Both the position numbers and the translations under genes were made by a program. From Rhizobium sp. CCGE 510 (GTDB lineage Bacteria; Pseudomonadota; Alphaproteobacteria; Rhizobiales; Rhizobiaceae), in NCBI RefSeq assembly GCF_000292525.1, contig NZ_AEYF01000008.1:62001-126000 (forward strand): a stretch of DNA of 64,000 bases. The letters are read 5' to 3'. The notes under the pieces were generated by a model, which saw only the letters and a program-made list of their open reading frames with translations, was not told where the DNA came from and made no database searches. Position 1 is the first letter of the stretch. Each line of letters begins with the position of its first letter. Below, piece by piece: positions 15,756 through 38,829 of the stretch.

Positions 15756-16751
15756 TCAGGCGACCATTTGGACAATTGAGGGAATTCGGGCGGCGGGACC
15801 AAGGCCGGTGGCAACGATAGAGACCCGCATACGGTCACTGAGGCTCTCGTCGAAGCTTGCGCCGAAGATGATCTCGGCATTCCCATCGACTTCTTCGCGA
15901 ATGCGGCCGGCCGCCTCATCGACTTCGAACAGGGTGAGATCTCGACCAGCAGAGATCGAGACGATAACCCCTTTTGCGTCCTTAAGTATCGCGTCGCCAA
16001 ACAGCGGATTTTCCAGGGCTGCTTTCGCGGCCGCAGTCGCTCTGCCCTGGCCCGCAGCTTCTCCGGTCCCCATCACCGCCGTGCCCATGTCCCGCATGAT
16101 CGCTTTCACATCGGCGAAATTGAGATTGACCACGCCTTCCTTCAGGATCAGGTCGACGATCGAGCTGACGCCTGCGTAGAGCACGGCGTCAGCCGAAGCA
16201 AAGGCCGCCGCAAGCGTCGTGTGAGGGTCCGACAGGCGAAGAAGGCTCTGGTTTGGGACAACAATGACAGTATCGGCGACTTCGAGGAGCTGTTCGATGC
16301 CGTCTTTTGCCTGGCGCATGCGGTGCGAGCCTTCGAACGCAAACGGCTCCGTGACAACAGCGACCGTGAGAACGCCGGCCTGCCGTGCGGCGCGGGCAAT
16401 AACCGGCGCTGCCCCGGTGCCTGTGCCACCGCCCATGCCAGCGGCGATAAAGCACATATGATAACCGGCGAGATGCTCCATGATCTCGTGGATCGACTCT
16501 TCCGCAGCGGCACGACCGATTGCCGGGAGCGAGCCGGCGCCCAGACCCTCGGTAACCTTCAGGCCAAGTTGCACGACCTGCGACGCCTTCGACTTGACGA
16601 GCGCCTGAGCGTCGGTGTTGGCAACCACAAAATCGACACCGGATAATTCCTGCGTAATCATGTTGTCGACGGCGTTTCCGCCGCCGCCTCCGACACCGAT
16701 CACGGCAATCTTCGGCTTCCAGCCTGCCGGTTTCTGTAGGGGGTGCATCAT
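15756..16751 (-). CDS. ftsZ2: Second FtsZ (tubulin-like GTPase) lacking the C-terminal tail
   Basis: A 331-residue FtsZ paralogue. It carries the nucleotide-binding loop IAVIGVGGGGGNAVDNMI (15-32), NTDAQAL (45-51) and the tubulin signature GGGTGTG (107-113). The synergy T7 loop reads NLNFADV: the first catalytic acid of the usual NxDFAD motif is Asn211, while Asp214 is kept. The chain ends right after the GTPase and activation domains (...IPSIVQMVA), with no disordered linker and no conserved C-terminal peptide for FtsA/ZipA-type tethering. A similarly short FtsZ2 is known in Sinorhizobium meliloti. The ATG at 16749-16751 has GGACGG upstream. It follows fabF2 after 40 bases and is probably the last gene of a TetR-controlled operon. 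Nothing suggests frameshift decay. Confidence 0.9.
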   Translation of the reverse strand: MMHPLQKPAGWKPKIAVIGVGGGGGNAVDNMITQELSGVDFVVANTDAQALVKSKASQVVQLGLKVTEGLGAGSLPAIGRAAAEESIHEIMEHLAGYHMCFIAAGMGGGTGTGAAPVIARAARQAGVLTVAVVTEPFAFEGSHRMRQAKDGIEQLLEVADTVIVVPNQSLLRLSDPHTTLAAAFASADAVLYAGVSSIVDLILKEGVVNLNFADVKAIMRDMGTAVMGTGEAAGQGRATAAAKAALENPLFGDAILKDAKGVIVSISAGRDLTLFEVDEAAGRIREEVDGNAEIIFGASFDESLSDRMRVSIVATGLGPAARIPSIVQMVA

Positions 16752-16791
16752 AATAATCCGTCCTATCCTCGTTCGAATTGTTTGTAGAGGC

Positions 16792-18069
16792 CTATGCCGC
16801 TTTTGCAGGCCAGCGCTTAAACAGCGCACTCGCATTCACGCCGCCGAACCCGAAGCCATTGGTGATCGCGTAATCCATGAACAGCGGCCGGGCCACCTTG
16901 GCGACGATGTCAATTCCGTCGCTGGCAGGGTCGGGTGCGTTCAGATTCAGCGTTGGCGGCGCGATCTGATCGCGCAGAGCCATGATTGCAAAGATTGCTT
17001 CCAATCCACCGGCAGCACCGAGCAGGTGACCGGTCGCTGATTTCGTGCCGCTCACCGCCAGACCGGATCCCTTCCCGAACACAGACTTGATGGCCTCGAT
17101 TTCCCCGCGGTCCCCAACCGGCGTTGAGGTGGCGTGAGCATTCACGTGCTGGATTTCCTGAGGAGAAATGCCGGCCTGTTGGATTGCAATCTGCATGGCT
17201 CTCGCGGCGCCCGATCCGTCCTCAGGACCGGACGTGATGTGGTGAGCGTCGGCTGTCGTGCCGTAGCCGACCAATTCGGCTAAAGGCTCGGCGCCGCGCG
17301 CAAGGGCATGGCTGAGGGATTCGATGACCAGCACGCCTGCACCTTCGCCCATGACGAACCCGTCGCGGAGTGTATCGAACGGTCGCGATGCCAGTTCAGG
17401 CGTGTCGTTGAACCCCGCAGACAAGGACCGGGCAGCAGCAAAGCCGCCAAGGCTCACGATATTCATGCAGGCTTCCGTCCCGCCGCAGATGGCGATGTCG
17501 GCTTCGTTCGCACGAATGAGCCTGGCGGCGTCACCAATCGCCTGAACGCCTGCAGCGCACGCTGTCACCGGTGCTCCAAGGGGACCCTTCAACCCATGTC
17601 GTATCGATACCTGACCTGCTGCCAGGTTGACCAGAAACGACGGGATGGTGAAGGGCGACAAACGTCGTGGCCCCTTATGGTCGACAGTCCGCACAGCGTC
17701 AGTGATGGCGGGGAAGCCACCGATCCCGGAAGCAATGATCGTCGCCGTTCGAACGCGGTCCTCCTCCGAAATGGGCTTCCAACGCGCCTGCGCAAGTGCT
17801 TCGTCAGCCGCTGCGAGCGCGAAAAGAATAAAGCGATCGATCTTTCGCTGATCTTTCAGCGGCAGCACAAGATCAGGATCGAACCCTGCTTCTGCGTCCT
17901 CGGCGATGGATGGGACCACGCCACCGATCTTGGCGGGGAGATCACCGACAACCTCGTCCGATAGGCGGCGAATCCCGGATTTTCCGGCTTTGAGCCGTGT
18001 CCAGGAGTTTGAGACATTGGCACCGAGCGGGCTAAGCGCTCCCATGCCTGTGACGACGATACGACGCAT
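16792..18069 (-). CDS. Beta-ketoacyl-ACP synthase II paralogue (FabF-like)
   Basis: A 425-residue condensing enzyme that would elongate acyl-ACP with malonyl-ACP. The Cys-His-His triad is complete: C171 in VTACAAG, H312 in NAHATSTPVGD and H348 in GTKSATGHLLGAAG, with K343 also present. The glycine-rich gate is NGFGFGGVNAS. A strong GGAGG precedes the ATG at 18067-18069. There is no acyl carrier protein, fabG or lipid A/Nod-factor gene beside it; its neighbours are tetR upstream and ftsZ2 downstream on the same strand. It is therefore unlikely to be the housekeeping enzyme. It may be a drug-insensitive backup or serve special acyl synthesis. Confidence 0.92.
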   Translation of the reverse strand: MRRIVVTGMGALSPLGANVSNSWTRLKAGKSGIRRLSDEVVGDLPAKIGGVVPSIAEDAEAGFDPDLVLPLKDQRKIDRFILFALAAADEALAQARWKPISEEDRVRTATIIASGIGGFPAITDAVRTVDHKGPRRLSPFTIPSFLVNLAAGQVSIRHGLKGPLGAPVTACAAGVQAIGDAARLIRANEADIAICGGTEACMNIVSLGGFAAARSLSAGFNDTPELASRPFDTLRDGFVMGEGAGVLVIESLSHALARGAEPLAELVGYGTTADAHHITSGPEDGSGAARAMQIAIQQAGISPQEIQHVNAHATSTPVGDRGEIEAIKSVFGKGSGLAVSGTKSATGHLLGAAGGLEAIFAIMALRDQIAPPTLNLNAPDPASDGIDIVAKVARPLFMDYAITNGFGFGGVNASALFKRWPAKAA

Positions 18070-18115
18070 GATACCTCCGAGAAATTGTGTGTTGCAGGAC
18101 GGGAACGGTGGCTTC

Positions 18116-18697
18116 CTAGTCTCCGTCGAGGGCGAGACGCTTTACCGCGTTGGCCGCCGCTTGAAGCAGGCGGTCCGACAGATCCGCGTCCGTCATGATC
18201 CTTGATAGCGTGACCGCACCGATCATCAGGGACAACACCACCATTGCCTTTTCATTGGCGTCGGGCTCGCCCTTTTCCGGCATCAGTTCCTCCAGCACTT
18301 GCAGATGAGCCTCGATCCCGTCTTGGAAGGGTGTCCGGATTTCCGCACTTTGCCGAGCCGCGTCAGACCCAAGTGCGACGAGCGGACATCCGTCTGCCGT
18401 TTCTCCGCGATGGTCCGCCGACAAGTAGAGACCGACGACCGCGCGCAACGGATCCGAGCTTGAGGCTGCAACGGACGACCACCGGCGCGTTGCACTCTCC
18501 ATCGCCCGCCGGGATGCGAGCGCCGCGAGATCGTCTTTGGATTCGAACTGCTTATAGAAGCCGCCCGAGGTAAGGCCGGCTCCCTGCATCAGGTCTTTAA
18601 GACCGATCCCGTCAAAACCGTGCTCGCGAAAGAGTCGGCTTGCGGCAGTGATCACGGCGTCTCGATTGGCTTCAGCTTGGGCTCGAGTGACTCGCAT
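18116..18697 (-). CDS. TetR-family repressor of the fabF2-ftsZ2 / RND efflux divergon
   Basis: A 193-residue regulator with an N-terminal TetR HTH (AVITAASRLFREHGFDGIGLKDLMQGAGLTSGGFYKQFESKDDLAALA) and a helical ligand domain. I place the start at the ATG 18695-18697, which has GGAG six bases upstream; another in-frame ATG at 18707-18709 abuts the operator and lacks a ribosome site. The gene is first in a minus-strand operon with fabF2 and ftsZ2 (46 and 40 bases spacing) and divergent from the RND genes. Two matching operators lie in the shared promoter, so auto-regulation plus control of the pump is strongly suggested. Confidence 0.9.
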   Translation of the reverse strand: MRVTRAQAEANRDAVITAASRLFREHGFDGIGLKDLMQGAGLTSGGFYKQFESKDDLAALASRRAMESATRRWSSVAASSSDPLRAVVGLYLSADHRGETADGCPLVALGSDAARQSAEIRTPFQDGIEAHLQVLEELMPEKGEPDANEKAMVVLSLMIGAVTLSRIMTDADLSDRLLQAAANAVKRLALDGD

Positions 18698-18710
18698 TTG
18701 GCGCTCCATT

Positions 18711-18759
18711 TAGATTTCACTTGACATCTATATACGCTTTAGATTTAAGTTGCAATCTA
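18711..18759. promoter_or_regulatory. Divergent promoter with twin TetR operators
   Basis: Two 20-base sites share the architecture TAGAT-N10-ATCTA: 18711-18730 and 18740-18759, with centres 29 bases apart. They overlap promoters in both directions. On the plus strand TTGACA (18721-18726) is followed after 17 bases by TTTAAG. On the minus strand TTGCAA is followed after 17 bases by TATAGA. A repressor bound here would block both the efflux operon and tetR-fabF2-ftsZ2. The promoter assignments are motif-based. Confidence 0.75.
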
Positions 18760-18793
18760 TTCCGATGCATCGACCGTCAAGAAGGGTCATCCC

Positions 18794-19897
18794 ATGAAAA
18801 CGAAGTTTCTTCTCTCCTCTGCGGTCGTGATCGCCGGCGCCGCCACCGCAGCGTTTGTCTTTTGGCCGACCGAGAAAGTCTCGGCAGCCGCCGATCCCCG
18901 GACCGCTGTCCCGTTTGTGAGCGTCGTGAAGGCAACGACACCGGATACCGTCGCCAGAAGCTTTACCGGGACGATTGCGGCCCGCGTCCAGAGCGACCTT
19001 GGCTTTCGGGTTCCCGGCAAGATCATCGAACGGTTGGTCAACCTCGGTGACGAGGTGAAAGCGGGACAGCCGCTGATGAAGATCGACGAAACGGATCTGC
19101 GTCTCGCGCTGACCGCGAAACGCAATGCCGTTGCGGCTGCCCAGGCAACATTCGTTCAGGCGCAGGCCGACGAAAAGCGTTTTGGTGCTCTGGTGAAAAA
19201 CTTGGCTGCGTCCACACAGCAATATGAAAAGGCGAAGGCGGCCCTTGATACTGCCGCCGCGCAACTTGCCGCCGCGCAAGCTGACGCGAATGTCGCCGAC
19301 AACGAGGCGACATATACAGTGCTGCTGGCAGACGCTGACGGAACAATTGTCGAAACGCTGGGTGAGCCCGGACAGGTGGTTGCCGCCGGCCAGACGGTCA
19401 TTCGGCTTGCCCAGGCCGGAGCACGAGAAGCTCTGGTATGGATGCCGGAAAATCTCCGGCCGGAGATCGGCGCGACCGCGCAAGCCACCGTTTATGGCCG
19501 CGACACTGAGGACAACGCGGTGCTTCGCCAGATTTCTGCTGCGGCAGACACGCGAACCCGCACCTACGAAACCCGCTGGGTCCTGCAAGGAGGTGCAGCC
19601 ACGGCATCCCTGGGTGCAACGGTGACGATCAAGATTCCGAACAAGGATGCGCAGTCCCATGCCGAGGTGCCGGTCGGCGCTCTCCTGGACGATGGCAACC
19701 GTAGCGGTATCTGGGTCGTCGACGAGAAAGCGTCCAAGGTGCACTTCCGTGATCTTAAAATTGAACGACTTGGTCAAGAAGACGCGATCGTTTCGGGCTT
19801 GAAGCCAGGGGAGGTGGTTGTGGCTCTCGGCGCGCATCTCCTGACCGATGGCGCGGAAATTCGCACGAGTATCGAAAAAGCAGAGGTGGCCAAGTGA
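18794..19897 (+). CDS. RND efflux periplasmic adaptor (membrane fusion protein)
   Basis: A 367-residue HlyD/AcrA-type adaptor that links the inner-membrane pump to an outer-membrane channel. An N-terminal signal or anchor segment (residues 1-32) precedes the lipoyl half-motif GFRVPGKIIERLVNLGDEVKAGQPLMKID, an alanine- and glutamine-rich coiled-coil hairpin (about 105-165) and the second lipoyl half (GTIVETLGEPGQVVAAGQTV). AAGGG precedes the ATG. It overlaps the pump gene at TGATG. No outer-membrane factor gene is present in the window, so a TolC-like protein encoded elsewhere must be used. Confidence 0.93.
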   Translation: MKTKFLLSSAVVIAGAATAAFVFWPTEKVSAAADPRTAVPFVSVVKATTPDTVARSFTGTIAARVQSDLGFRVPGKIIERLVNLGDEVKAGQPLMKIDETDLRLALTAKRNAVAAAQATFVQAQADEKRFGALVKNLAASTQQYEKAKAALDTAAAQLAAAQADANVADNEATYTVLLADADGTIVETLGEPGQVVAAGQTVIRLAQAGAREALVWMPENLRPEIGATAQATVYGRDTEDNAVLRQISAAADTRTRTYETRWVLQGGAATASLGATVTIKIPNKDAQSHAEVPVGALLDDGNRSGIWVVDEKASKVHFRDLKIERLGQEDAIVSGLKPGEVVVALGAHLLTDGAEIRTSIEKAEVAK

Positions 19898-22800
19898 TGA
19901 GCTTCAATCTTTCCGCGCTCGCCGTTCGTGAGCGGGCCGTCACCCTCTTTTTTATCGTCCTTCTAGCTGCAGCAGGCGTCTATGCCTTCGTGAGCCTCGG
20001 GCGCGCAGAGGATCCGTCTTTCACCATCAAGACGATGACCGTCACGAGTGTCTGGCCGGGCGCAACGGCGCGCGAGATGCAGGATCTCGTCGCGGAACCG
20101 CTTGAAAAACGTCTTCAGGAACTGACCTGGTACGATCGGGTGGAGACGACCACTCGTCCGGGCTACGCATTCCTGACGGTCACCCTCAAAGACGATACGC
20201 CGGCTAGCGCGGTCGAGGAAGAATTCTATCAGGCACGCAAGAAACTGGGCGACGAGGCGAGGAGCCTGCCGCCTGGTGTCTTCGGGCCTTTCGTCAACGA
20301 TGAGTATTCCGACGTCAGCTTTGCCCTTTACGCGCTGAAAGCCAAGGGCATGCCGATGCGTGACCTGGTTCGTCAGGCGGAAACGATCCGGCAGGACCTT
20401 CTGCATGTGCCGGGCGTGAAGAAGATCAACATTCTTGGGGAACGGCCCGAGCAGATCTTTGTGGAATTCTCTTTCGCCAAGCTCGCGACACTTGGTGTGT
20501 CGGCGCAGGACATTGCGTCGGCCCTACAGAACCAGAACACCGTCACGCCTGCCGGCTCCATCGATACACGCGGTCCGCAGGTCTTTATCCGGTTTGATGG
20601 CGCCTACAACAGCATACAGGCCATCGCGGATACGCCGATCGTGGCCGGTGGCCGGACTCTGAAACTTTCCGATATCGCGGACATCCGTCGCGGCTACGAA
20701 GATCCCGCGACCTACATCATTCGACACGAAGGCGAGCCCGCCATCATGCTCGGTGCCGTCATGCAATCGGGCTGGAATGGTCTCGAGCTTGGCAAGGCAC
20801 TTGAAGAGAGATCCGCGACGATCAGCCAGTCATTGCCACTCGGTATGACCCTGGCGAAGGTCAGCGACCAGGCCGTCAACATTCAGGAAGCCGTCGGCGA
20901 GTTCATGATGAAGTTCGCGATGGCGCTCGGCGTCGTGCTGTTCGTCAGTCTGATCGCTCTGGGCTGGCGCGTCGGTATCGTCGTGGCACTTGCGGTTCCA
21001 CTGACGCTTGCCGTGGTCTTCCTGATCATGCTGGAGACCGGACGCTTCTTCGATCGCATTACGCTTGGAGCCCTGATCCTGGCGCTCGGGCTTCTGGTCG
21101 ACGACGCCATCATCGCCATCGAGATCATGGTCGTAAAGATGGAAGAGGGCATGGATCGCATCAAGGCGGCTGCCTATGCCTGGAGCCACAGCGCAGCGCC
21201 GATGCTGTCAGGCACGCTTGTCACCATTATCGGCCTAATGCCGGTCGGTTTTGCGAAATCGACGGCCGGTGAGTATGCCGGCAACATTTTCTGGGTCGTG
21301 GGTTTCGCTCTCATCGTATCCTGGATCATCGCCGTGGTGTTCACACCCTATCTCGGCGTCAAGATGCTTCCTGACATCAAGCCTGTTACTGGAGGCCACG
21401 CCGCTATCTATGGCACGCCGAATTACCAACGTCTTCGTGCGGTCATCAAGTTCGCCGTCCGCCATAAGTTCATGACCTGCGCCGTCGTGGTCGTGGTGAT
21501 GGGTGTTTCCGTCGTCGGAATGGGGAGCGTCAAGCAGCAATTCTTTCCGACCTCCGACCGCCCCGAGGTGTTGGTCGAGGTTCGGCTGCCCGAAGGCACG
21601 AGCATCGAAACGACGACGGCCACTGTCGAAAAGCTCGAGCGCTGGCTGCAGGAGCAGCCCGAGTCGAAGATCGTCACCAGCTATATCGGCCAGGGCGCGC
21701 CACGATTCTTCTTTGCAATGGCGCCTGAACTGCCGGATCCGGCGTTCGCCAAGATCGTCGCGCTCACCCCCGATGCCGAAGGTCGCGAAGCGCTGAAGCA
21801 TCGCCTGCGTGCAGCCATCGCCGATGGCCTTGCGCCGGAAGCCTCCGTTCGCGTCACGCAGCTCGTGTTTGGCCCTTACACACCGTTCCCCGTCGAGTTT
21901 CGCATTATGGGGCCCGATCCCGAGAAGCTCTATCAGATCTCGGAACAAGCACTCGCGATCATGAAAACCGTCCCGGACGTTCGCCAGTCCAACCGCGATT
22001 GGGGCAACCGCACGCCTATCGTCCGCTTCATTCCTGACCAGGAGAGGCTTAATCTCATCGGCCTGTCGCCGGCCGAAGCCGCCCAACAGTTGCAGCTTCT
22101 GCTGACGGGCGTTCCGATCACCCAGGTCCGTGAAAACATCCGCAACGTCCCGGTTGTTGCGCGCAGCGGCGGCGACAATCGTCTTGATCCCTCAAAGCTC
22201 TCAGACTTCTCGCTGATCAGCAGGGACGGAAGGGCGATTCCGCTCGATCAGATCGGTCACTCGGAGGTCAGCTTCGAAGAGCCGATCATGAAGCGCCGTG
22301 ACCGCACGCCGGTCATCACCGTCCGGTCTGACATCAGCGAGGCAACGCAACCGCCGGAAGTGTCGAAAGCCGTCATGCAGGCTCTGCAGCCATTGATCAC
22401 CTCGCTGCCGGTCGGCTATCGGATCGAAATGGGCGGCAATATCGAGGAATCCCTCAAGGCAAACGCCGCGCTGGTCAAGATCTTCCCCTTGATGATCGCA
22501 GCGACACTGATCGTGATCATTCTTCAAGTTCGCAGCCTGTCGACCATGACCATGGTCATACTGACGGCGCCGCTTGGCCTTGCCGGCGCAGTGCCGGCTT
22601 TGCTCCTCTTCAATCAACCATTCGGCTTTAACGCCATTCTGGGTCTGATTGGACTTGCCGGCATCCTGATGCGCAATACGCTTATCTTGACCGAGCAGAT
22701 CAAGGAGTATCAGGCGGCAGGTCTGGACGATTATCACGCTGTCATCGAAGCGACCGTGCAACGAACTCGTCCGGTTATCCTCACGGCGCTTGCGGCGGTA

Positions 22801-23028
22801 CTCGCGTTCATTCCGCTGACCCACTCAGTGTTCTGGGGATCGATGGCTTATACGCTGATCGGCGGGACGGCTGTTGGCACGCTCATGATCCTGCTGTTCC
22901 TTCCTGCTCTCTATGCGGCCTGGTTCCGGATCAAGCCGACGGAGGACAACGCGGTGCACGCCGACCATGGCGTCACACAGCCGGAGGCGACCCGCCTGGA
23001 ACCGAAGCTGCATCTGGCGGCCGAGTGA
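19897..23028 (+). CDS. RND efflux pump, inner-membrane permease subunit
   Basis: A 1043-residue AcrB-superfamily proton/drug antiporter with twelve predicted helices and two large periplasmic loops. The TM4 proton-relay aspartate pair is present in LGLLVDDAIIAIE (about residues 402-403). The N-terminus (MSFNLSALAVRERAVTLFFIVLLAAAGVYAF) and the porter-domain segments (VWPGATAREMQDLVAEPLEKRLQEL) fit the subgroup annotated as multidrug RND permeases in alphaproteobacteria. The ATG at 19897 overlaps the adaptor stop codon by one base and has GAGGTGG upstream; a GTG three bases earlier is possible. Probable substrates are amphipathic drugs or plant compounds. Confidence 0.94.
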   Translation: MSFNLSALAVRERAVTLFFIVLLAAAGVYAFVSLGRAEDPSFTIKTMTVTSVWPGATAREMQDLVAEPLEKRLQELTWYDRVETTTRPGYAFLTVTLKDDTPASAVEEEFYQARKKLGDEARSLPPGVFGPFVNDEYSDVSFALYALKAKGMPMRDLVRQAETIRQDLLHVPGVKKINILGERPEQIFVEFSFAKLATLGVSAQDIASALQNQNTVTPAGSIDTRGPQVFIRFDGAYNSIQAIADTPIVAGGRTLKLSDIADIRRGYEDPATYIIRHEGEPAIMLGAVMQSGWNGLELGKALEERSATISQSLPLGMTLAKVSDQAVNIQEAVGEFMMKFAMALGVVLFVSLIALGWRVGIVVALAVPLTLAVVFLIMLETGRFFDRITLGALILALGLLVDDAIIAIEIMVVKMEEGMDRIKAAAYAWSHSAAPMLSGTLVTIIGLMPVGFAKSTAGEYAGNIFWVVGFALIVSWIIAVVFTPYLGVKMLPDIKPVTGGHAAIYGTPNYQRLRAVIKFAVRHKFMTCAVVVVVMGVSVVGMGSVKQQFFPTSDRPEVLVEVRLPEGTSIETTTATVEKLERWLQEQPESKIVTSYIGQGAPRFFFAMAPELPDPAFAKIVALTPDAEGREALKHRLRAAIADGLAPEASVRVTQLVFGPYTPFPVEFRIMGPDPEKLYQISEQALAIMKTVPDVRQSNRDWGNRTPIVRFIPDQERLNLIGLSPAEAAQQLQLLLTGVPITQVRENIRNVPVVARSGGDNRLDPSKLSDFSLISRDGRAIPLDQIGHSEVSFEEPIMKRRDRTPVITVRSDISEATQPPEVSKAVMQALQPLITSLPVGYRIEMGGNIEESLKANAALVKIFPLMIAATLIVIILQVRSLSTMTMVILTAPLGLAGAVPALLLFNQPFGFNAILGLIGLAGILMRNTLILTEQIKEYQAAGLDDYHAVIEATVQRTRPVILTALAAVLAFIPLTHSVFWGSMAYTLIGGTAVGTLMILLFLPALYAAWFRIKPTEDNAVHADHGVTQPEATRLEPKLHLAAE

Positions 23029-23200: not shown

Positions 23201-23785
23201 ATGACCCCGATCGTCTCAATTTTCAAAAACCCGCCCGATGGCGGCCGGGGGTTCCACCGGGATATGCGCGTGCGGTGGGCGCTTGAGGAAGTCGGTCAGC
23301 CCTATCGGCTGCGATTACTGGCCTTCTCCGAAATGCGCCGTCCTGAGTACCGCGCGCTCCACCCCTTCGGACAGATGCCGACCTATGAGGACGGGAATCT
23401 GGTGCTTTTCGAATCCGGCGCGATCGTCCATCACATCGCGCATACGTACCCTGGTCTCTTGCCGCTCGACATGAGCGCCCGGTCGCGTGCGGTCATGTGG
23501 ATGTTTGCGGCGCTGAACACGATCGAGCCCTGCATGTCTTCAGGCAACGCCGACTATCTGTCTGTCCGGCTCGCCCAACTCTCAACAAAGCTCGGTTACG
23601 CCGATTGGCTGGATGGAGACTTCAGTGCGGCTGATCTGTTGATGGTGACAGTCCTGCGCGCGTTGCGTGGCGCGGATATTCTGGAGGGAATTCCAAATCT
23701 CCAAAGGTACGTCGAGCGTGGCGAGGCCCGCCCCGCATTTCGACAGGCCCTGACACCGTCCGCAACTATCATGCAAACGGCATGA
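23201..23785 (+). CDS. Glutathione S-transferase family protein
   Basis: A 194-residue GST-like protein. The N-terminal thioredoxin-fold domain runs to about residue 80 (FGQMPTYEDGNLVLFESGAIVHHIA includes the cis-Pro and the ES glutathione-contacting pair). The C-terminal helical domain contains WLDGDFSAADLLMV, the GST N-capping motif. It is a little shorter than typical bacterial GSTs in the middle of the C-terminal domain. I chose 23201 as the ATG giving the conserved start; longer frames run into the stem-loop. The location downstream of an efflux pump suggests detoxification of electrophiles. Confidence 0.85.
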   Translation: MTPIVSIFKNPPDGGRGFHRDMRVRWALEEVGQPYRLRLLAFSEMRRPEYRALHPFGQMPTYEDGNLVLFESGAIVHHIAHTYPGLLPLDMSARSRAVMWMFAALNTIEPCMSSGNADYLSVRLAQLSTKLGYADWLDGDFSAADLLMVTVLRALRGADILEGIPNLQRYVERGEARPAFRQALTPSATIMQTA

Positions 23786-23851
23786 CGGACATGACTGCAC
23801 GCAGTGAACGCCGCCTTGCGGTGGCCAATTCAAATTTTGGAGGAAATCGAC

Positions 23852-24952
23852 ATGTCATTTGAAACCAGCAGGATTTTCGTGATCGGTGCCACCGGCGCGC
23901 AGGGCATGTCGGTCGTCAGGGGGCTCGTTGGCGATGGCAAGTATCAAGTTCTTGCTCTGACACGCGACGCAACGTCCGGTCGTGCGCGACAACTTGAGGA
24001 ATTGCCGAATGTATCGATCCTGGAAGGTTCGTTCGCGGACGAAGATGTCATTCGGAAGGGCTTTCGGGCTTGCGACGGAGCCTTCGTCAATATTGACGGA
24101 TTCAACACCGGCGAAAAGACTGAGACGTTTCTCGCGATAAGGATCTATGAAATCGCCATAGAGGAGGGGGTCAGGTTCTTCGTTTTCGGCAACCTCGACT
24201 ATGTGCTGAAAAAGTCAGGTTATGATTCTCAGTTCCGAACCGGCCACTATGACGGCAAGGGGCGCGTCGCAGAATGGATTCTGTCGCAAAACAATGCCAA
24301 TGCCGACAGGATGGGCGCGGCGATTTTTACGACAGGGCCGTACATGGAGATGGCGTTCTCGCCCTTTACGCCAATGACGCCCAGAATTGAGGAGGGCGTT
24401 GTTACCTGGAGGGTGCCGCTTGGGCATGGAGCCGTCGTCCATGTCTCACTGGAAGATTGCGCATATTATGTTCGTTGGCTTTTCGACAACACGGAAAGGT
24501 CTGTCGGAATGGACCTTGAGGTTGCCATCGAACATGTGCGTTACGACGAACTCGCTGCGGCGTTCGCGCGTGTGACGGGACATCCCGCACGCTACATCGA
24601 TACCGACGTTCATCAGTATTTCGGCGGTTCTCTCAAGAACGCGGCAGATCGGCCGGCCGGCTACAATGCGGATCCCGCCGATAGGAGCACGATGAGTTTC
24701 AGGGACAACTTCACTGGCTTCTGGAATATGTGGAAACATGACGTCATCAAACGCGATTACCAGCTTCTTGATGACATCCATCCCAACAGATTGAAGTCGG
24801 CCGAGCAGTGGATACGGCGACATGAGGATCTTGCCCGCCTAAACGGGTCACCGTCGCTCTGGGACAAGCTTCAACCCGAGGCGTTGCAAAAAAGCTTTTC
24901 TGTTCTGAAAAGCAGCGAAGATAGGCAAAGGGGAAATGTTGGCGGCCTCTGA
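23852..24952 (+). CDS. NmrA-like NAD(P)-binding protein
   Basis: A 366-residue protein of the NmrA/SDR-atypical family. The Rossmann motif GATGAQG is at 12-18, and the family segments LEELPNVSILEGSFAD and FVFGNLDYVLKKSG are present. There is no catalytic YxxxK pair in the expected place, as in redox-sensing NmrA proteins. It has a C-terminal extension of about 60 residues relative to common NmrA proteins. A clear GGAGGAAA precedes the ATG. The next gene, tetR, starts 17 bases before its stop, so the two are co-translated; the pair may sense redox or electrophile stress. Confidence 0.82.
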   Translation: MSFETSRIFVIGATGAQGMSVVRGLVGDGKYQVLALTRDATSGRARQLEELPNVSILEGSFADEDVIRKGFRACDGAFVNIDGFNTGEKTETFLAIRIYEIAIEEGVRFFVFGNLDYVLKKSGYDSQFRTGHYDGKGRVAEWILSQNNANADRMGAAIFTTGPYMEMAFSPFTPMTPRIEEGVVTWRVPLGHGAVVHVSLEDCAYYVRWLFDNTERSVGMDLEVAIEHVRYDELAAAFARVTGHPARYIDTDVHQYFGGSLKNAADRPAGYNADPADRSTMSFRDNFTGFWNMWKHDVIKRDYQLLDDIHPNRLKSAEQWIRRHEDLARLNGSPSLWDKLQPEALQKSFSVLKSSEDRQRGNVGGL

Positions 24953-25622
24953 CACCTCAGCGATACCAAGCCATGGCACACGGTCACGCCGGGGCGAAGA
25001 CGCTGAAATCAGGAACCTTATTCTTGATCATGCCGAGGCATATATCCGCCGCATTGGCCGCAAGAAAACCAACGTCGCCGATATAGCCGATAACCTGGAA
25101 ATGAGCCGGGCGAACATTTATCGCTTTTTCCCAACCAGAGCGGCCATAGACCATTGCGTTTTTGCCAGGCTTACCGACGACACGCTGTCGGCAATCACTC
25201 ATATTGCTGACAGTCCTGATACAGCGCCGGCAAGGCTGGTTACGATCCTCCAAGTCCTTCATCGTCGGGTTCGTGAGGATCTTATCCATGCGCCGAATAT
25301 CCACGCGCTCTACGTCGCAGCTTACTTGGACAACTGGACAGTAACGCACCTCTATCTTCAACGGTTGACCGCTATTCTCGCAAAAGTCCTTTGTGAAATG
25401 AACGCCTCATTTAAAATGAGCACCGATGGTCCAGTGGAAACTGCACAAGCTGTTGTCGACGCAATGAATTCGTTTCTGCATCCTGTTCTGGTTGAATTGC
25501 GTCTCAAAAACCAGAAAGACATCGATGTGGAATTGAGAGCCCAGATCGCGTTCATCCTACGCGCCCTCAGCGTCCGAGAGCATATGGAGTCAAATAGCCC
25601 AAATGAATTTGAAGGCAGGTGA
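24936..25622 (+). CDS. TetR/AcrR-family regulator
   Basis: A 228-residue regulator with an N-terminal HTH (ILDHAEAYIRRIGRKKTNVADIADNLEMSRANIYRFFPTRAAIDHCVFARL) and a C-terminal helical domain. The ATG lies inside the end of the NmrA-like gene, with AAAGGGGA immediately upstream. Base composition is less GC-rich than the surrounding operons, as in the NmrA-like gene, which hints that the pair was acquired together. Its targets are unknown. Confidence 0.85.
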   Translation: MLAASDTSAIPSHGTRSRRGEDAEIRNLILDHAEAYIRRIGRKKTNVADIADNLEMSRANIYRFFPTRAAIDHCVFARLTDDTLSAITHIADSPDTAPARLVTILQVLHRRVREDLIHAPNIHALYVAAYLDNWTVTHLYLQRLTAILAKVLCEMNASFKMSTDGPVETAQAVVDAMNSFLHPVLVELRLKNQKDIDVELRAQIAFILRALSVREHMESNSPNEFEGR

Positions 25623-37266: not shown

Positions 37267-38829
37267 ATGCCGCGCGCGCGGGATCATCGCATGGAACGAG
37301 TTGAGCCTGCCCATCCCGATGCAAAGCCTGCCATCGTTTGGCTCGGCTTCATCGCCATGTGCATCGGCATGTTCATGGCGATCCTCGACGTCCAGGTGGT
37401 GGCGACCTCGCTGCCGACCATCCAGTCGGCGCTGGGTATCGATCCGGATCAGATGAGCTGGATACAGACGGCCTATCTTATCGCCGAAGTGGTGGCGATC
37501 CCGCTGACCGGCCTGTTGACGCGGCTGCTTTCGATGCGGTGGCTGTTCGTTACCGCCATCAGCCTGTTCGTCGCGGCCTCGGCCGGCTGTGCCGCCAGCG
37601 GCAGCTTCGGCGAGCTGGTCGCCTGGCGGGTGCTGCAGGGCTTTTCCGGCGGCACCCTCATCCCCTCGGTGTTTTCGGCCGTGTTCATCCTTTTCCCGAA
37701 CGAGCGGCAGGCGCTGGCGACGACGATCGCCGGCGTGCTTGCGGTGCTGGCGCCGACCGTCGGGCCGATCGTTGGCGGATGGCTGACCGAGACCTATTCC
37801 TGGCACTGGCTGTTTTTGATCAACATCCTGCCGGGCATTGCCTCGGCGATCGTTGCGGCACGCTTCCTGCCGCGGCAGGCGCCCGATCCGTCCGAACTCA
37901 GGCATCTCGACGGCCTATCGCTGCTGCTGATGGCAACCGCGCTGACGACGCTGGAACTCAGCCTGAAAGAGGCGCCGACCAGCGGCTGGACCTCGGCCTA
38001 TGTGCTGACCTTGCTGGCGGTCTGCCTGGTCTCGGGCGGTGGTTTCATTCGGCGAACGTTGCGCCGCAGCCGACCGATCGTCGATCTCGGCAATTTCACT
38101 GACCGGAATTTTCTCGTCGGCTCGGTCCTGAGCTTCGTGCTTGGTATCGGCCTGTTCGGTTCGGTCTATCTGATGCCGGTCTTCCTGGCTTTCGTCAGAG
38201 GCCACGACGCCCTTGAGATCGGCATGACGATGCTGGTCACCGGCGTCGCCCAGCTGATCACGGCGCCGGTCGCCGTCGCGCTGGAGAAGCGTTTGGATGC
38301 GCGGCTGTTGTCGGCCGCCGGTTTTGCGCTGTTTGCGGTCGGTGTCGGCATGAGCGCCTTTCAGGATCCGCGTTCGGACTATGACGCGATGTTCTGGCCG
38401 CAGATCGTCCGCGGCGTCGCCATCATGTTCTGCCTGCTGCCGCCGACGCGGCTGGCGCTCGGCACGCTCCCGGCCGATCGCATTCCCGATGCCAGCGGTC
38501 TTTTCAATCTGATGCGCAATCTCGGCGGGGCGATCGGCATCGCGCTGATCGACACCATCATCTACACCCGCTCGGAACCGCTGGGCCAAAGCCTCTGGAC
38601 CCGTCTTCAAGCCGGCGACATCGAGGCGGCGACCTTTGTCGGCGCTCCGCTTCCGGCCATATCGGGACATAGCGGCAGTTTCGACGCCGATACCACGGCG
38701 CTGCTCGATCCGCTGATCCAGACTGCGGCAAGCGCGCAGGCGATCAACGAGGCCTGGATGGTCATCGCCGTCTTGACCGGCTGCGCCCTGCTCTGCGTGC
38801 CCTTCGCCAAGCGGCCGGCGCCGGGCTGA
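37267..38829 (+). CDS. MFS drug:H+ antiporter, DHA2 (EmrB/QacA) type
   Basis: A 520-residue inner-membrane efflux protein with fourteen predicted helices. Recognisable features are LDVQVVATSLPTIQ in helix 1 (the DHA2 D1 motif), LSMRWLF after helix 2 and the motif-C-like stretch GVLAVLAPTVGPIVGGWLTE in helix 5. Start 37267 has GGGG upstream; an alternative ATG lies at 37291. No EmrA adaptor gene accompanies it. Its 3' end is echoed as a decayed copy at 39856-39949. Confidence 0.9.
   Translation: MPRARDHRMERVEPAHPDAKPAIVWLGFIAMCIGMFMAILDVQVVATSLPTIQSALGIDPDQMSWIQTAYLIAEVVAIPLTGLLTRLLSMRWLFVTAISLFVAASAGCAASGSFGELVAWRVLQGFSGGTLIPSVFSAVFILFPNERQALATTIAGVLAVLAPTVGPIVGGWLTETYSWHWLFLINILPGIASAIVAARFLPRQAPDPSELRHLDGLSLLLMATALTTLELSLKEAPTSGWTSAYVLTLLAVCLVSGGGFIRRTLRRSRPIVDLGNFTDRNFLVGSVLSFVLGIGLFGSVYLMPVFLAFVRGHDALEIGMTMLVTGVAQLITAPVAVALEKRLDARLLSAAGFALFAVGVGMSAFQDPRSDYDAMFWPQIVRGVAIMFCLLPPTRLALGTLPADRIPDASGLFNLMRNLGGAIGIALIDTIIYTRSEPLGQSLWTRLQAGDIEAATFVGAPLPAISGHSGSFDADTTALLDPLIQTAASAQAINEAWMVIAVLTGCALLCVPFAKRPAPG

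What the first reader, a model, noticed from the sequence alone, without database searches (positions are those of the whole stretch)
15756..23028. TetR-controlled divergon pairing spare FabF and FtsZ with an RND efflux pump
Seen: tetR, fabF2 and ftsZ2 lie head to tail on the minus strand with 46- and 40-base gaps. They diverge from an adaptor and RND pump operon across a promoter with two identical-architecture operators. Known: FabF and FtsZ are both targets of natural antibiotics, TetR-RND divergons are drug-inducible, and producers or neighbours of antibiotic makers often carry resistant target duplicates. Inference: one inducer would both export a toxin and replace two of its possible targets, or remodel lipid and division during envelope stress. 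I know of no described system with this content.
Basis: partly seen in the sequence, partly recalled or inferred. Interest (0 to 1): 0.87.

Follow-up and report, generated by a model that had tools for sequence, protein, structure and literature searches.

The report
Drug pump with spare FabF, FtsZ
Rhizobia and their relatives share a conserved gene block that joins a two-gene efflux pump to a spare fatty-acid-making enzyme (FabF) behind one pair of predicted switch sites, sometimes with a shortened copy of the cell-division protein FtsZ; the block would likely let a cell pump out a poison of membrane-lipid synthesis and keep making lipid meanwhile.

Summary
In detail: tetR-fabF2-ftsZ2 run head to tail (46- and 40-base gaps) and diverge from an adaptor-RND pair across 84 bases carrying two TAGA-N12-TCTA boxes 29 bases apart. 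It is not a one-strain oddity. In 47 related loci, tetR-fabF2 is always together, adaptor plus RND are divergent in 39, and the box pair is kept in 44. FtsZ is the weak member: intact in 16, broken or a remnant in 6, absent in 25. It lacks the linker and C-terminal peptide, so replacement of housekeeping FtsZ is unlikely. FabF2 belongs to a sharply separate FabF clade with intact catalytic triad and changed pocket residues (F137, G272, A304, V403). Outside these loci the clade sits beside unlike drug pumps in a minority of loci (8 of 34) and in 11 of 20 chosen Pseudomonas loci, against 0 of 43 for housekeeping fabF. The core is a known kind: in Pseudomonas putida a TetR represses an operon of two efflux genes and fabF2 (PMC8319022). 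Best reading: inducible efflux plus a spare, probably inhibitor-tolerant ketoacyl synthase, with an optional captured FtsZ core. Inhibitor tolerance, co-induction and the FtsZ role are untested. New variant of a known kind.

The parts
15756..16751 (-). ftsZ2: FtsZ GTPase core only (331 aa), no linker, no C-terminal peptide; T7 loop NLNFAD
16792..18069 (-). fabF2: beta-ketoacyl-ACP synthase of the FabF2 clade, catalytic C-H-H kept, pocket signature F137/G272/A304/V403 (E. coli FabF numbering)
18116..18709 (-). tetR: TetR-family regulator with LmrA/YxaF-like C-terminal domain
18711..18730 (.). operator-like box 1, TAGA-N12-TCTA, holds a TTGACA (18722-18727)
18740..18759 (.). operator-like box 2, TAGA-N12-TCTA, 29 bases from box 1 start to start
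18794..19897 (+). RND periplasmic adaptor (membrane fusion protein)
19894..23028 (+). RND efflux permease
23201..23785 (+). glutathione S-transferase-like gene behind the pump; kept in several relatives
23804..24952 (+). NmrA-family NAD(P)-binding protein; kept in few relatives (L004, L122, L127, L143, in part L024)
24936..25622 (+). second TetR-family gene at the end of the rightward run; close matches in near relatives, weaker TetR matches at a like place behind the pump in many others

Best explanation
A conserved divergent gene block in Hyphomicrobiales pairs an RND efflux pump with a spare FabF, and in about a third of copies a linker-less FtsZ; a TetR-type protein is predicted to repress both sides from two paired operators, and FabF2 would likely keep fatty-acid elongation going while a lipid-synthesis inhibitor is pumped out. 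Steps: (1) shown by sequence: gene order, the paired boxes kept in 44 of 47 loci, the separate FabF2 clade with intact catalytic triad and altered pocket. (2) Inferred: the TetR binds the boxes, since the same pair also stands beside a 73%-identical TetR paralogue elsewhere in the genome. (3) Inferred: a toxic, probably hydrophobic compound releases TetR, so pump and tetR-fabF2-ftsZ2 are made together. (4) Inferred: FabF2 tolerates an inhibitor that blocks housekeeping FabF/FabB, or simply adds ketoacyl synthase activity. (5) Most uncertain: FtsZ2, with no known means of reaching the membrane by itself, would enter FtsZ filaments and tune division; it is dispensable to the block.
For: Locus conservation in 47 loci: tetR 47, adaptor 39, RND 40, full divergon 39, box pair 44 with at most 1 mismatch. 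Genome-wide the strict motif is found only here and beside the TetR paralogue, there with the same 29-base pairing if one mismatch is allowed. FabF2 clade separate from housekeeping FabF (SH-aLRT 100; module 99, quick method) with F137, G272, A/S304 and V403 in 46 of 46 module rows and catalytic C163/H303/H340 kept; Pro272 is a thiolactomycin contact in FabB according to a review (PMC10054515, passage). Pump genes within 6 kb: FabF2 clade outside the module 8 of 34 (6 of 34 if L008's tet(G)/floR, which also fed the model, and a weak adaptor hit in L041 are set aside), a Pseudomonas subset 11 of 20, housekeeping fabF 0 of 43. Pumps are of different kinds: RND, EmrAB-like MFS, other MFS, MATE; in one Pantoea the MFS pump and FabF2 share one frame. 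P. putida: TetR represses a TetR-efflux-efflux-fabF2 operon and derepressed FabF2 replaces FabB (PMC8319022); 8 of 20 Pseudomonas loci fetched here have TetR-adaptor-RND-fabF2 in one direction, and the RND of the two measured is about 65% identical to the window's. Purifying selection on fabF2: dN/dS 0.04-0.10 in the 11 pairs with a value.
Against: No inhibitor, inducer or expression datum. The pocket changes are clade-wide, also in copies without a pump, and may reflect substrate range. In P. putida, deleting the two pump genes did not change the fabB phenotype, so a joint role was not seen there. 26 of 34 non-module FabF2 loci have no pump within 6 kb by my models, and 8 of 47 module loci lack the divergent adaptor. 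70 of 149 Pseudomonas genomes have no FabF2-clade match at the cut-off used. The closest solved FabF2-clade structures (4ddo/4f32) include, as I recall and no call showed, a platencin complex, which would speak against broad inhibitor resistance. No sigma-70 match in the intergenic stretch.
Confidence: 0.5

Rival explanations
1. Membrane-lipid adjustment rather than inhibitor bypass. FabF2 is a broad ketoacyl synthase (KAS I plus II) switched on to raise unsaturated fatty acids when a membrane-active compound or foreign fatty acid arrives, and the pump exports the same compound. The pocket changes set chain or substrate range.
For: P. putida FabF2 restores both E. coli fabB and fabF functions and replaces FabB when derepressed (PMC8319022, abstract and passages). 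Position 272 lies in gating loop 2 (residues 265-275; PMC7138838, passages); position 137 is in the acyl pocket as I recall. Neighbours with acyl links in some loci: a PaaI thioesterase in Methylovirgula, a thiolase in an Ensifer.
Against: Drug-type pumps of several families beside the clade are not explained by lipid tuning alone; no fatty-acid data in Hyphomicrobiales.
Confidence: 0.3
2. One reading: both FabF2 and FtsZ2 are resistant spare targets, replacing two targets of one or two toxins.
For: Co-directional tetR-fabF2-ftsZ2 with short gaps; module FtsZ is under purifying selection (dN/dS 0.04-0.12 in 7 of the 8 pairs outside the window's group that gave a value, 0.21 in one).
Against: FtsZ2 has no linker or C-terminal peptide; in A. 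tumefaciens only the full-length FtsZ with both is essential and localises on its own (PMC13170164, passage). ftsZ intact in only 16 of 47 loci.
Confidence: 0.07
3. FtsZ2 is a drug-inducible division brake: an untethered FtsZ core that co-assembles with FtsZ1 and slows constriction until lipid synthesis recovers.
For: Core-only FtsZ kept with fabF2 mostly by descent: FtsZ and FabF trees agree in the main groups, by eye; nucleotide-binding loops kept in the intact copies aligned.
Against: At least 7 forced changes of presence on the FabF tree and broken or remnant copies in 6 of 47 loci; 144 of 148 genomes of the genus already have at least two FtsZ matches.
Confidence: 0.13
4. No joint function: a mobile pump locus that happened to carry fabF2 and ftsZ.
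For: Copies lie on plasmids, some typed as conjugative (the collection searched holds plasmids only); ftsZ patchy.
Against: tetR-fabF2 together in 47 of 47, operators kept, and pairing with unlike pumps elsewhere against 0 of 43 for housekeeping fabF.
Confidence: 0.08

Closest known systems
Pseudomonas putida F1 TetR (Pput_2425)-efflux-efflux-fabF2 (Pput_2422) operon, PMC8319022
   Same: TetR regulator, two efflux genes and a second FabF in one locus; FabF2 cryptic until the TetR is inactivated. In 8 of 20 Pseudomonas loci fetched here the same order occurs; the RND of the two measured is about 65% identical to the window's.
   Different: One co-linear operon instead of a divergon; no ftsZ named. 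That Pput_2422 itself is in the clade is inferred (45.7% to E. coli FabF in the paper against 47-51% for the clade members compared; one clade member in each of the 79 matching Pseudomonas genomes of 149).
Spare KAS I/II genes in thiotetronate antibiotic clusters (tlmF and kin), PMC5518548 (passages)
   Same: Extra FabB/FabF proposed to give self-resistance by altered active site or added activity.
   Different: Those lie in biosynthetic clusters of producers; none was seen in the stretch of the window looked at.
Short extra FtsZ of Rhizobiaceae (A. tumefaciens has three FtsZ, only one with linker and C-terminal peptide; PMC13170164, passage)
   Same: GTPase core without linker and C-terminal peptide.
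   Different: The short FtsZ compared here lie outside this locus; the module FtsZ fall on one side of the tree from them (79/58).
TetR-controlled RND divergons (AcrR, SmeR type; recalled)
   Same: TetR gene divergent from adaptor-RND operon with operators between.
   Different: The regulator's own side carries fabF2 and ftsZ.

Membership tests
TetR-efflux-FabF2 locus (P. putida F1 type) | TetR-family gene in the same run as a second fabF | tested here: met
   46-base gap, same strand; 47 of 47 loci
TetR-efflux-FabF2 locus (P. putida F1 type) | two-gene efflux pump at the locus | tested here: met
   adaptor plus RND, divergent rather than co-linear
TetR-efflux-FabF2 locus (P. putida F1 type) | FabF of the FabF2 clade | tested here: met
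   tree support 100 and residue signature; the P. putida F1 protein itself was not at hand
TetR-efflux-FabF2 locus (P. putida F1 type) | TetR represses fabF2; derepressed FabF2 can replace FabB | not testable with these tools
   needs mutants and expression data
Inhibitor-resistant spare target | catalytic residues kept, inhibitor-pocket residues changed | tested here: met
   C163/H303/H340 kept; G272, A304, V403, F137 changed; resistance itself not shown
Inhibitor-resistant spare target | antibiotic biosynthetic genes next door (producer self-resistance) | tested here: inconclusive
   ORF lists of about 11-40 kb of the window read by eye show transport and catabolic genes and no frame longer than the RND's 1044 aa (the second list only frames of 330 aa or more); rest of the contig not searched
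Division-competent FtsZ | GTPase domain | tested here: met
   TIGR00065 373.6 bits against cut-off 295.2; GGGTGTG kept
Division-competent FtsZ | T7-loop catalytic aspartates | tested here: not met
   window copy reads NLNFAD; NLDFAD in the 17 other aligned FtsZ with the loop present
Division-competent FtsZ | C-terminal linker and conserved peptide | tested here: not met
   ends about 14 residues after the core; the full-length paralogue is 572 aa

The most novel reading that the evidence does not exclude
One toxin-responsive switch couples three layers of defence: export of the poison, a pocket-altered ketoacyl synthase that takes over lipid synthesis, and a membrane-untethered FtsZ that is slipped into the division ring to hold cell division until lipid supply recovers.
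Probability: 0.13. Interest if true: 0.85.

Novelty: new variant of a known kind. Interest (0 to 1): 0.52.

Why it matters
If right, a FabF clade found in many Pseudomonadota, in part of its loci next to RND, MFS or MATE pumps and often beside TetR or HxlR regulators, is a standing, inducible bypass of ketoacyl synthase inhibitors, a target class under drug development; the residue signature found here lets it be told from housekeeping FabF in any genome. The FtsZ-bearing copies make it testable whether lipid synthesis and division are ever controlled by one drug-responsive switch.

Tried and rejected
Rejected: FtsZ2 as GTPase-dead by design: the Asp-to-Asn change in the T7 loop is private to the window copy among those aligned, so it speaks for relaxed constraint here (dN/dS 0.14-0.22 in its own group of three), not for a class feature. 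Rejected: strain-specific oddity. Rejected: a wide TetR regulon; the strict motif has no other place in the genome apart from the paralogue's, and with one mismatch two more sites on contig 3 and one on contig 45, against 4 control matches. Led nowhere: paper searches for ftsZ+fabF+RND+TetR+rhizob, FtsZ2+Sinorhizobium+truncated, fabF+efflux+thiolactomycin+self-resistance: 0 papers each; passages of PMC3577659, PMC5900048, PMC4606726 and PMC5206705 gave nothing used here. The S. meliloti predation paper (PMC10315480, passages) has a fabF2 listed among lipid A and LPS genes, not this one. A platencin complex of a FabF2-clade protein (4f32) is recalled, not shown; none of the 12 papers listed, of 54, held 'vietnamiensis' or '4f32'. 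Two TetR dN/dS values failed (division by zero), and the FtsZ frames of L006, L026, L106 and L134 were taken short (301 aa). Rows dropped before counts: short or duplicate loci (L003, L012, L013, L018-L023, L123, L124, L140) from the FabF table; L060 and L062 (57%) were counted with the FabF2 group, but tree and residues put them with housekeeping, so I recounted. The 47 module loci are the held loci with FabF2 at least 77% identical to the window's plus one fetched later, so they are not a random sample, not every listed plasmid hit was fetched, and a few pairs are near-identical (L106/L107, L109/L146). The 20 Pseudomonas regions were 20 of 79 matching genomes, chosen by me and weighted to lower identity. 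In one search, 31 of 43 housekeeping loci and 30 of 34 non-module FabF2 loci had at least 9 kb of flank in all.
Full report
What is there. The finding's genes are present at the given coordinates and have the stated families. tetR, fabF2 and ftsZ2 lie on the minus strand with gaps of 46 and 40 bases; an adaptor and an RND permease run the other way, with 84 bases between tetR and the adaptor. Behind the pump come a glutathione S-transferase, an NmrA-like protein and a second TetR. The genome (6.9 Mb, 142 contigs) has three ftsZ: a full-length one (572 aa as read), a short one on contig 24, and this one. It has four full-length FabF-like matches: this one, a 75% relative on contig 15 next to an HxlR regulator, the 52% housekeeping type on contig 1, and a 35% one; two further partial matches lie on contig 18.

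The switch. Two boxes of the form TAGA-N12-TCTA stand 29 bases apart start to start. Across 47 homologous loci the pair at that spacing is found with at most one mismatch in 44 (35 exact); of the other three, two have 2 mismatches and one has its boxes 28 bases apart. Of 1880 random windows of the same loci, 65 scored 0-2 mismatches, which I take to be windows overlapping the true boxes; none scored 3, 1800 had 4 to 9, and 15 scored 16, probably masked stretches. In the own genome the strict motif hits only this divergon and a site on contig 3 (backward control 0), where with one mismatch it is again a 29-base pair, next to a TetR 73% identical to this one. That the boxes are the TetR's operators is therefore a strong inference, not a shown fact. 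TTGACA lies inside box 1, but the strict sigma-70 scan found no promoter.

How conserved. Protein searches of plasmids, genome contigs, the order and the genus gave homologous loci in Rhizobium, Agrobacterium, Ensifer, Shinella, Neorhizobium, Mesorhizobium, Ochrobactrum, Bosea and Methylovirgula. At a strict cut-off (E <= 1e-212), 24 of 148 genomes of the genus and 7 of 297 drawn from the order hold a close FabF2, the own genome counted in both. In the 47 loci compared: tetR 47, adaptor 39, RND 40, all three 39; ftsZ intact 16, broken or remnant 6, none 25.

FtsZ. In the genus all 148 genomes have FtsZ matches at the cut-off, 144 at least two, and 7 three; in all 7 one copy is next to fabF2 (places). 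Module FtsZ sequences (15 intact ones) fall on one side of the FtsZ tree (79/58; 14 of 15 at 98/95) with the other short FtsZ on the other side, and their main groups match those of the FabF trees by eye, so ftsZ has mostly been inherited with fabF2. Presence or remnant against absence needs at least 9 changes on the FabF tree, 7 forced by well supported branches. With six broken or remnant copies this reads as repeated loss, though some transfer is not excluded. dN/dS is 0.04-0.12 in 7 of 8 pairs with a value outside the window's group (0.21 in one with low dS), so intact copies are under selection, and 0.14-0.22 in the window's own group. The copies aligned lack the linker and C-terminal peptide. 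In A. tumefaciens only the full-length FtsZ is essential and localises on its own (PMC13170164, passage). A straight replacement of the housekeeping FtsZ is therefore unlikely; an accessory role in FtsZ filaments is my inference.

FabF2. A tree of 127 rows separates a FabF2 clade (80 rows: 46 module, 34 others from Pseudomonas, Yersinia, Hafnia, Pantoea, Kosakonia, Acidovorax, Bradyrhizobium, Bosea and more) with SH-aLRT 100 from housekeeping FabF, and the module within it with 99 (quick method, no bootstrap). In E. coli FabF numbering, module rows have F137, G272 and V403 in 46 of 46 and A304 in 45 of 46 (S in 1); the 34 others have F137, A/S304 and V403 in all 34, G272 in 33; the 46 housekeeping rows have P272 and T403 in all 46, F137 in none, and G304 in 44 (rows sorted by the tree). 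C163, H303 and H340 are kept in all rows of these groups; F400 too, except in one Paracoccus row. A review gives Pro272 and Phe390 as a methyl pocket for thiolactomycin in FabB (PMC10054515, passage), and residues 265-275 form gating loop 2 of FabF (PMC7138838, passages). So at least part of the changes sit where both inhibitors and acyl chains are handled; sequence alone cannot say which explains them.

Company the clade keeps. With one set of models, pump genes lie within 6 kb of fabF in 0 of 43 housekeeping loci, 8 of 34 non-module FabF2 loci and 11 of 20 Pseudomonas loci; a TetR or HxlR gene is adjacent in 1 of 43, 24 of 34 and 10 of 20. Caveats: the models were built from these loci; of the 8, L008 counts only by tet(G) and floR of a resistance region (two of the three sequences behind the MFS model) and L041 by a weak adaptor hit, which leaves 6; 31 of 43 housekeeping loci had 9 kb or more of flank; and the 20 Pseudomonas loci were picked by me from 79 matching genomes of 149. 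Pump types differ: adaptor-RND (8 of 20 Pseudomonas loci with TetR-adaptor-RND-fabF2 in one direction), HxlR-EmrA-EmrB-like MFS-fabF2 in Kosakonia, an MFS and FabF2 in one 943-residue frame in Pantoea with a ribosome-site-like start still present before fabF, an MFS in Bosea, MATE in Paracoccus. Pairing with unlike pumps is the best evidence for a joint function.

Known work. In P. putida F1 a TetR gene heads an operon whose last gene is fabF2 with two efflux genes between; FabF2 is cryptic until the repressor is lost and can then replace FabB; similar TetR-bearing clusters elsewhere are noted there (PMC8319022; abstract and passages). The authors call the pump unrelated and read the system as a backup for unsaturated fatty acid synthesis; deleting the pump did not change the fabB phenotype. 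Spare KAS I/II genes as self-resistance are proposed for thiotetronate clusters (PMC5518548, passages). I found no paper joining ftsZ to such a locus (open-licence library only).

Verdict. Real, conserved, and in its core a known kind. New here, as far as these searches reach: the divergent form with paired operators, the clade-wide pocket signature and pump company, and the captured, repeatedly lost FtsZ core.

Noticed in passing
L008 8487-10263 (NZ_CP029094.1): A FabF2-clade fabF with an HxlR regulator sits on a Pseudomonas paraeruginosa plasmid between a class 1 integron/IS6100 region and tet(G)/floR, i.e. in resistance-gene company.
   Followed up: partly
L050 8435-11266: In Pantoea rodasii an EmrB-like MFS pump and FabF2 are in one 943-residue frame.
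   Followed up: partly
L150 7501-9468 (contig 3 of the own genome): A 73% identical TetR paralogue has the same 29-base box pair and diverges from a MarR gene and an F420/NADP-type oxidoreductase.
   Followed up: partly
L118, L120, L028, stretch upstream of tetR: These relatives have a second box pair about 130 bases further on, spaced 27.
   Followed up: no
L063 (Stenotrophomonas maltophilia): A FabF outside the clade (53%) with A304 also has an adjacent HxlR regulator.
   Followed up: no
L115 7704-9645 (contig 15 of the own genome): A second FabF2-clade gene with HxlR upstream and no pump nearby by the family models used.
   Followed up: partly
window 37267-38829 (+): A 520-residue MFS drug-pump-like frame elsewhere in the window, judged by eye from the translation.
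   Followed up: no
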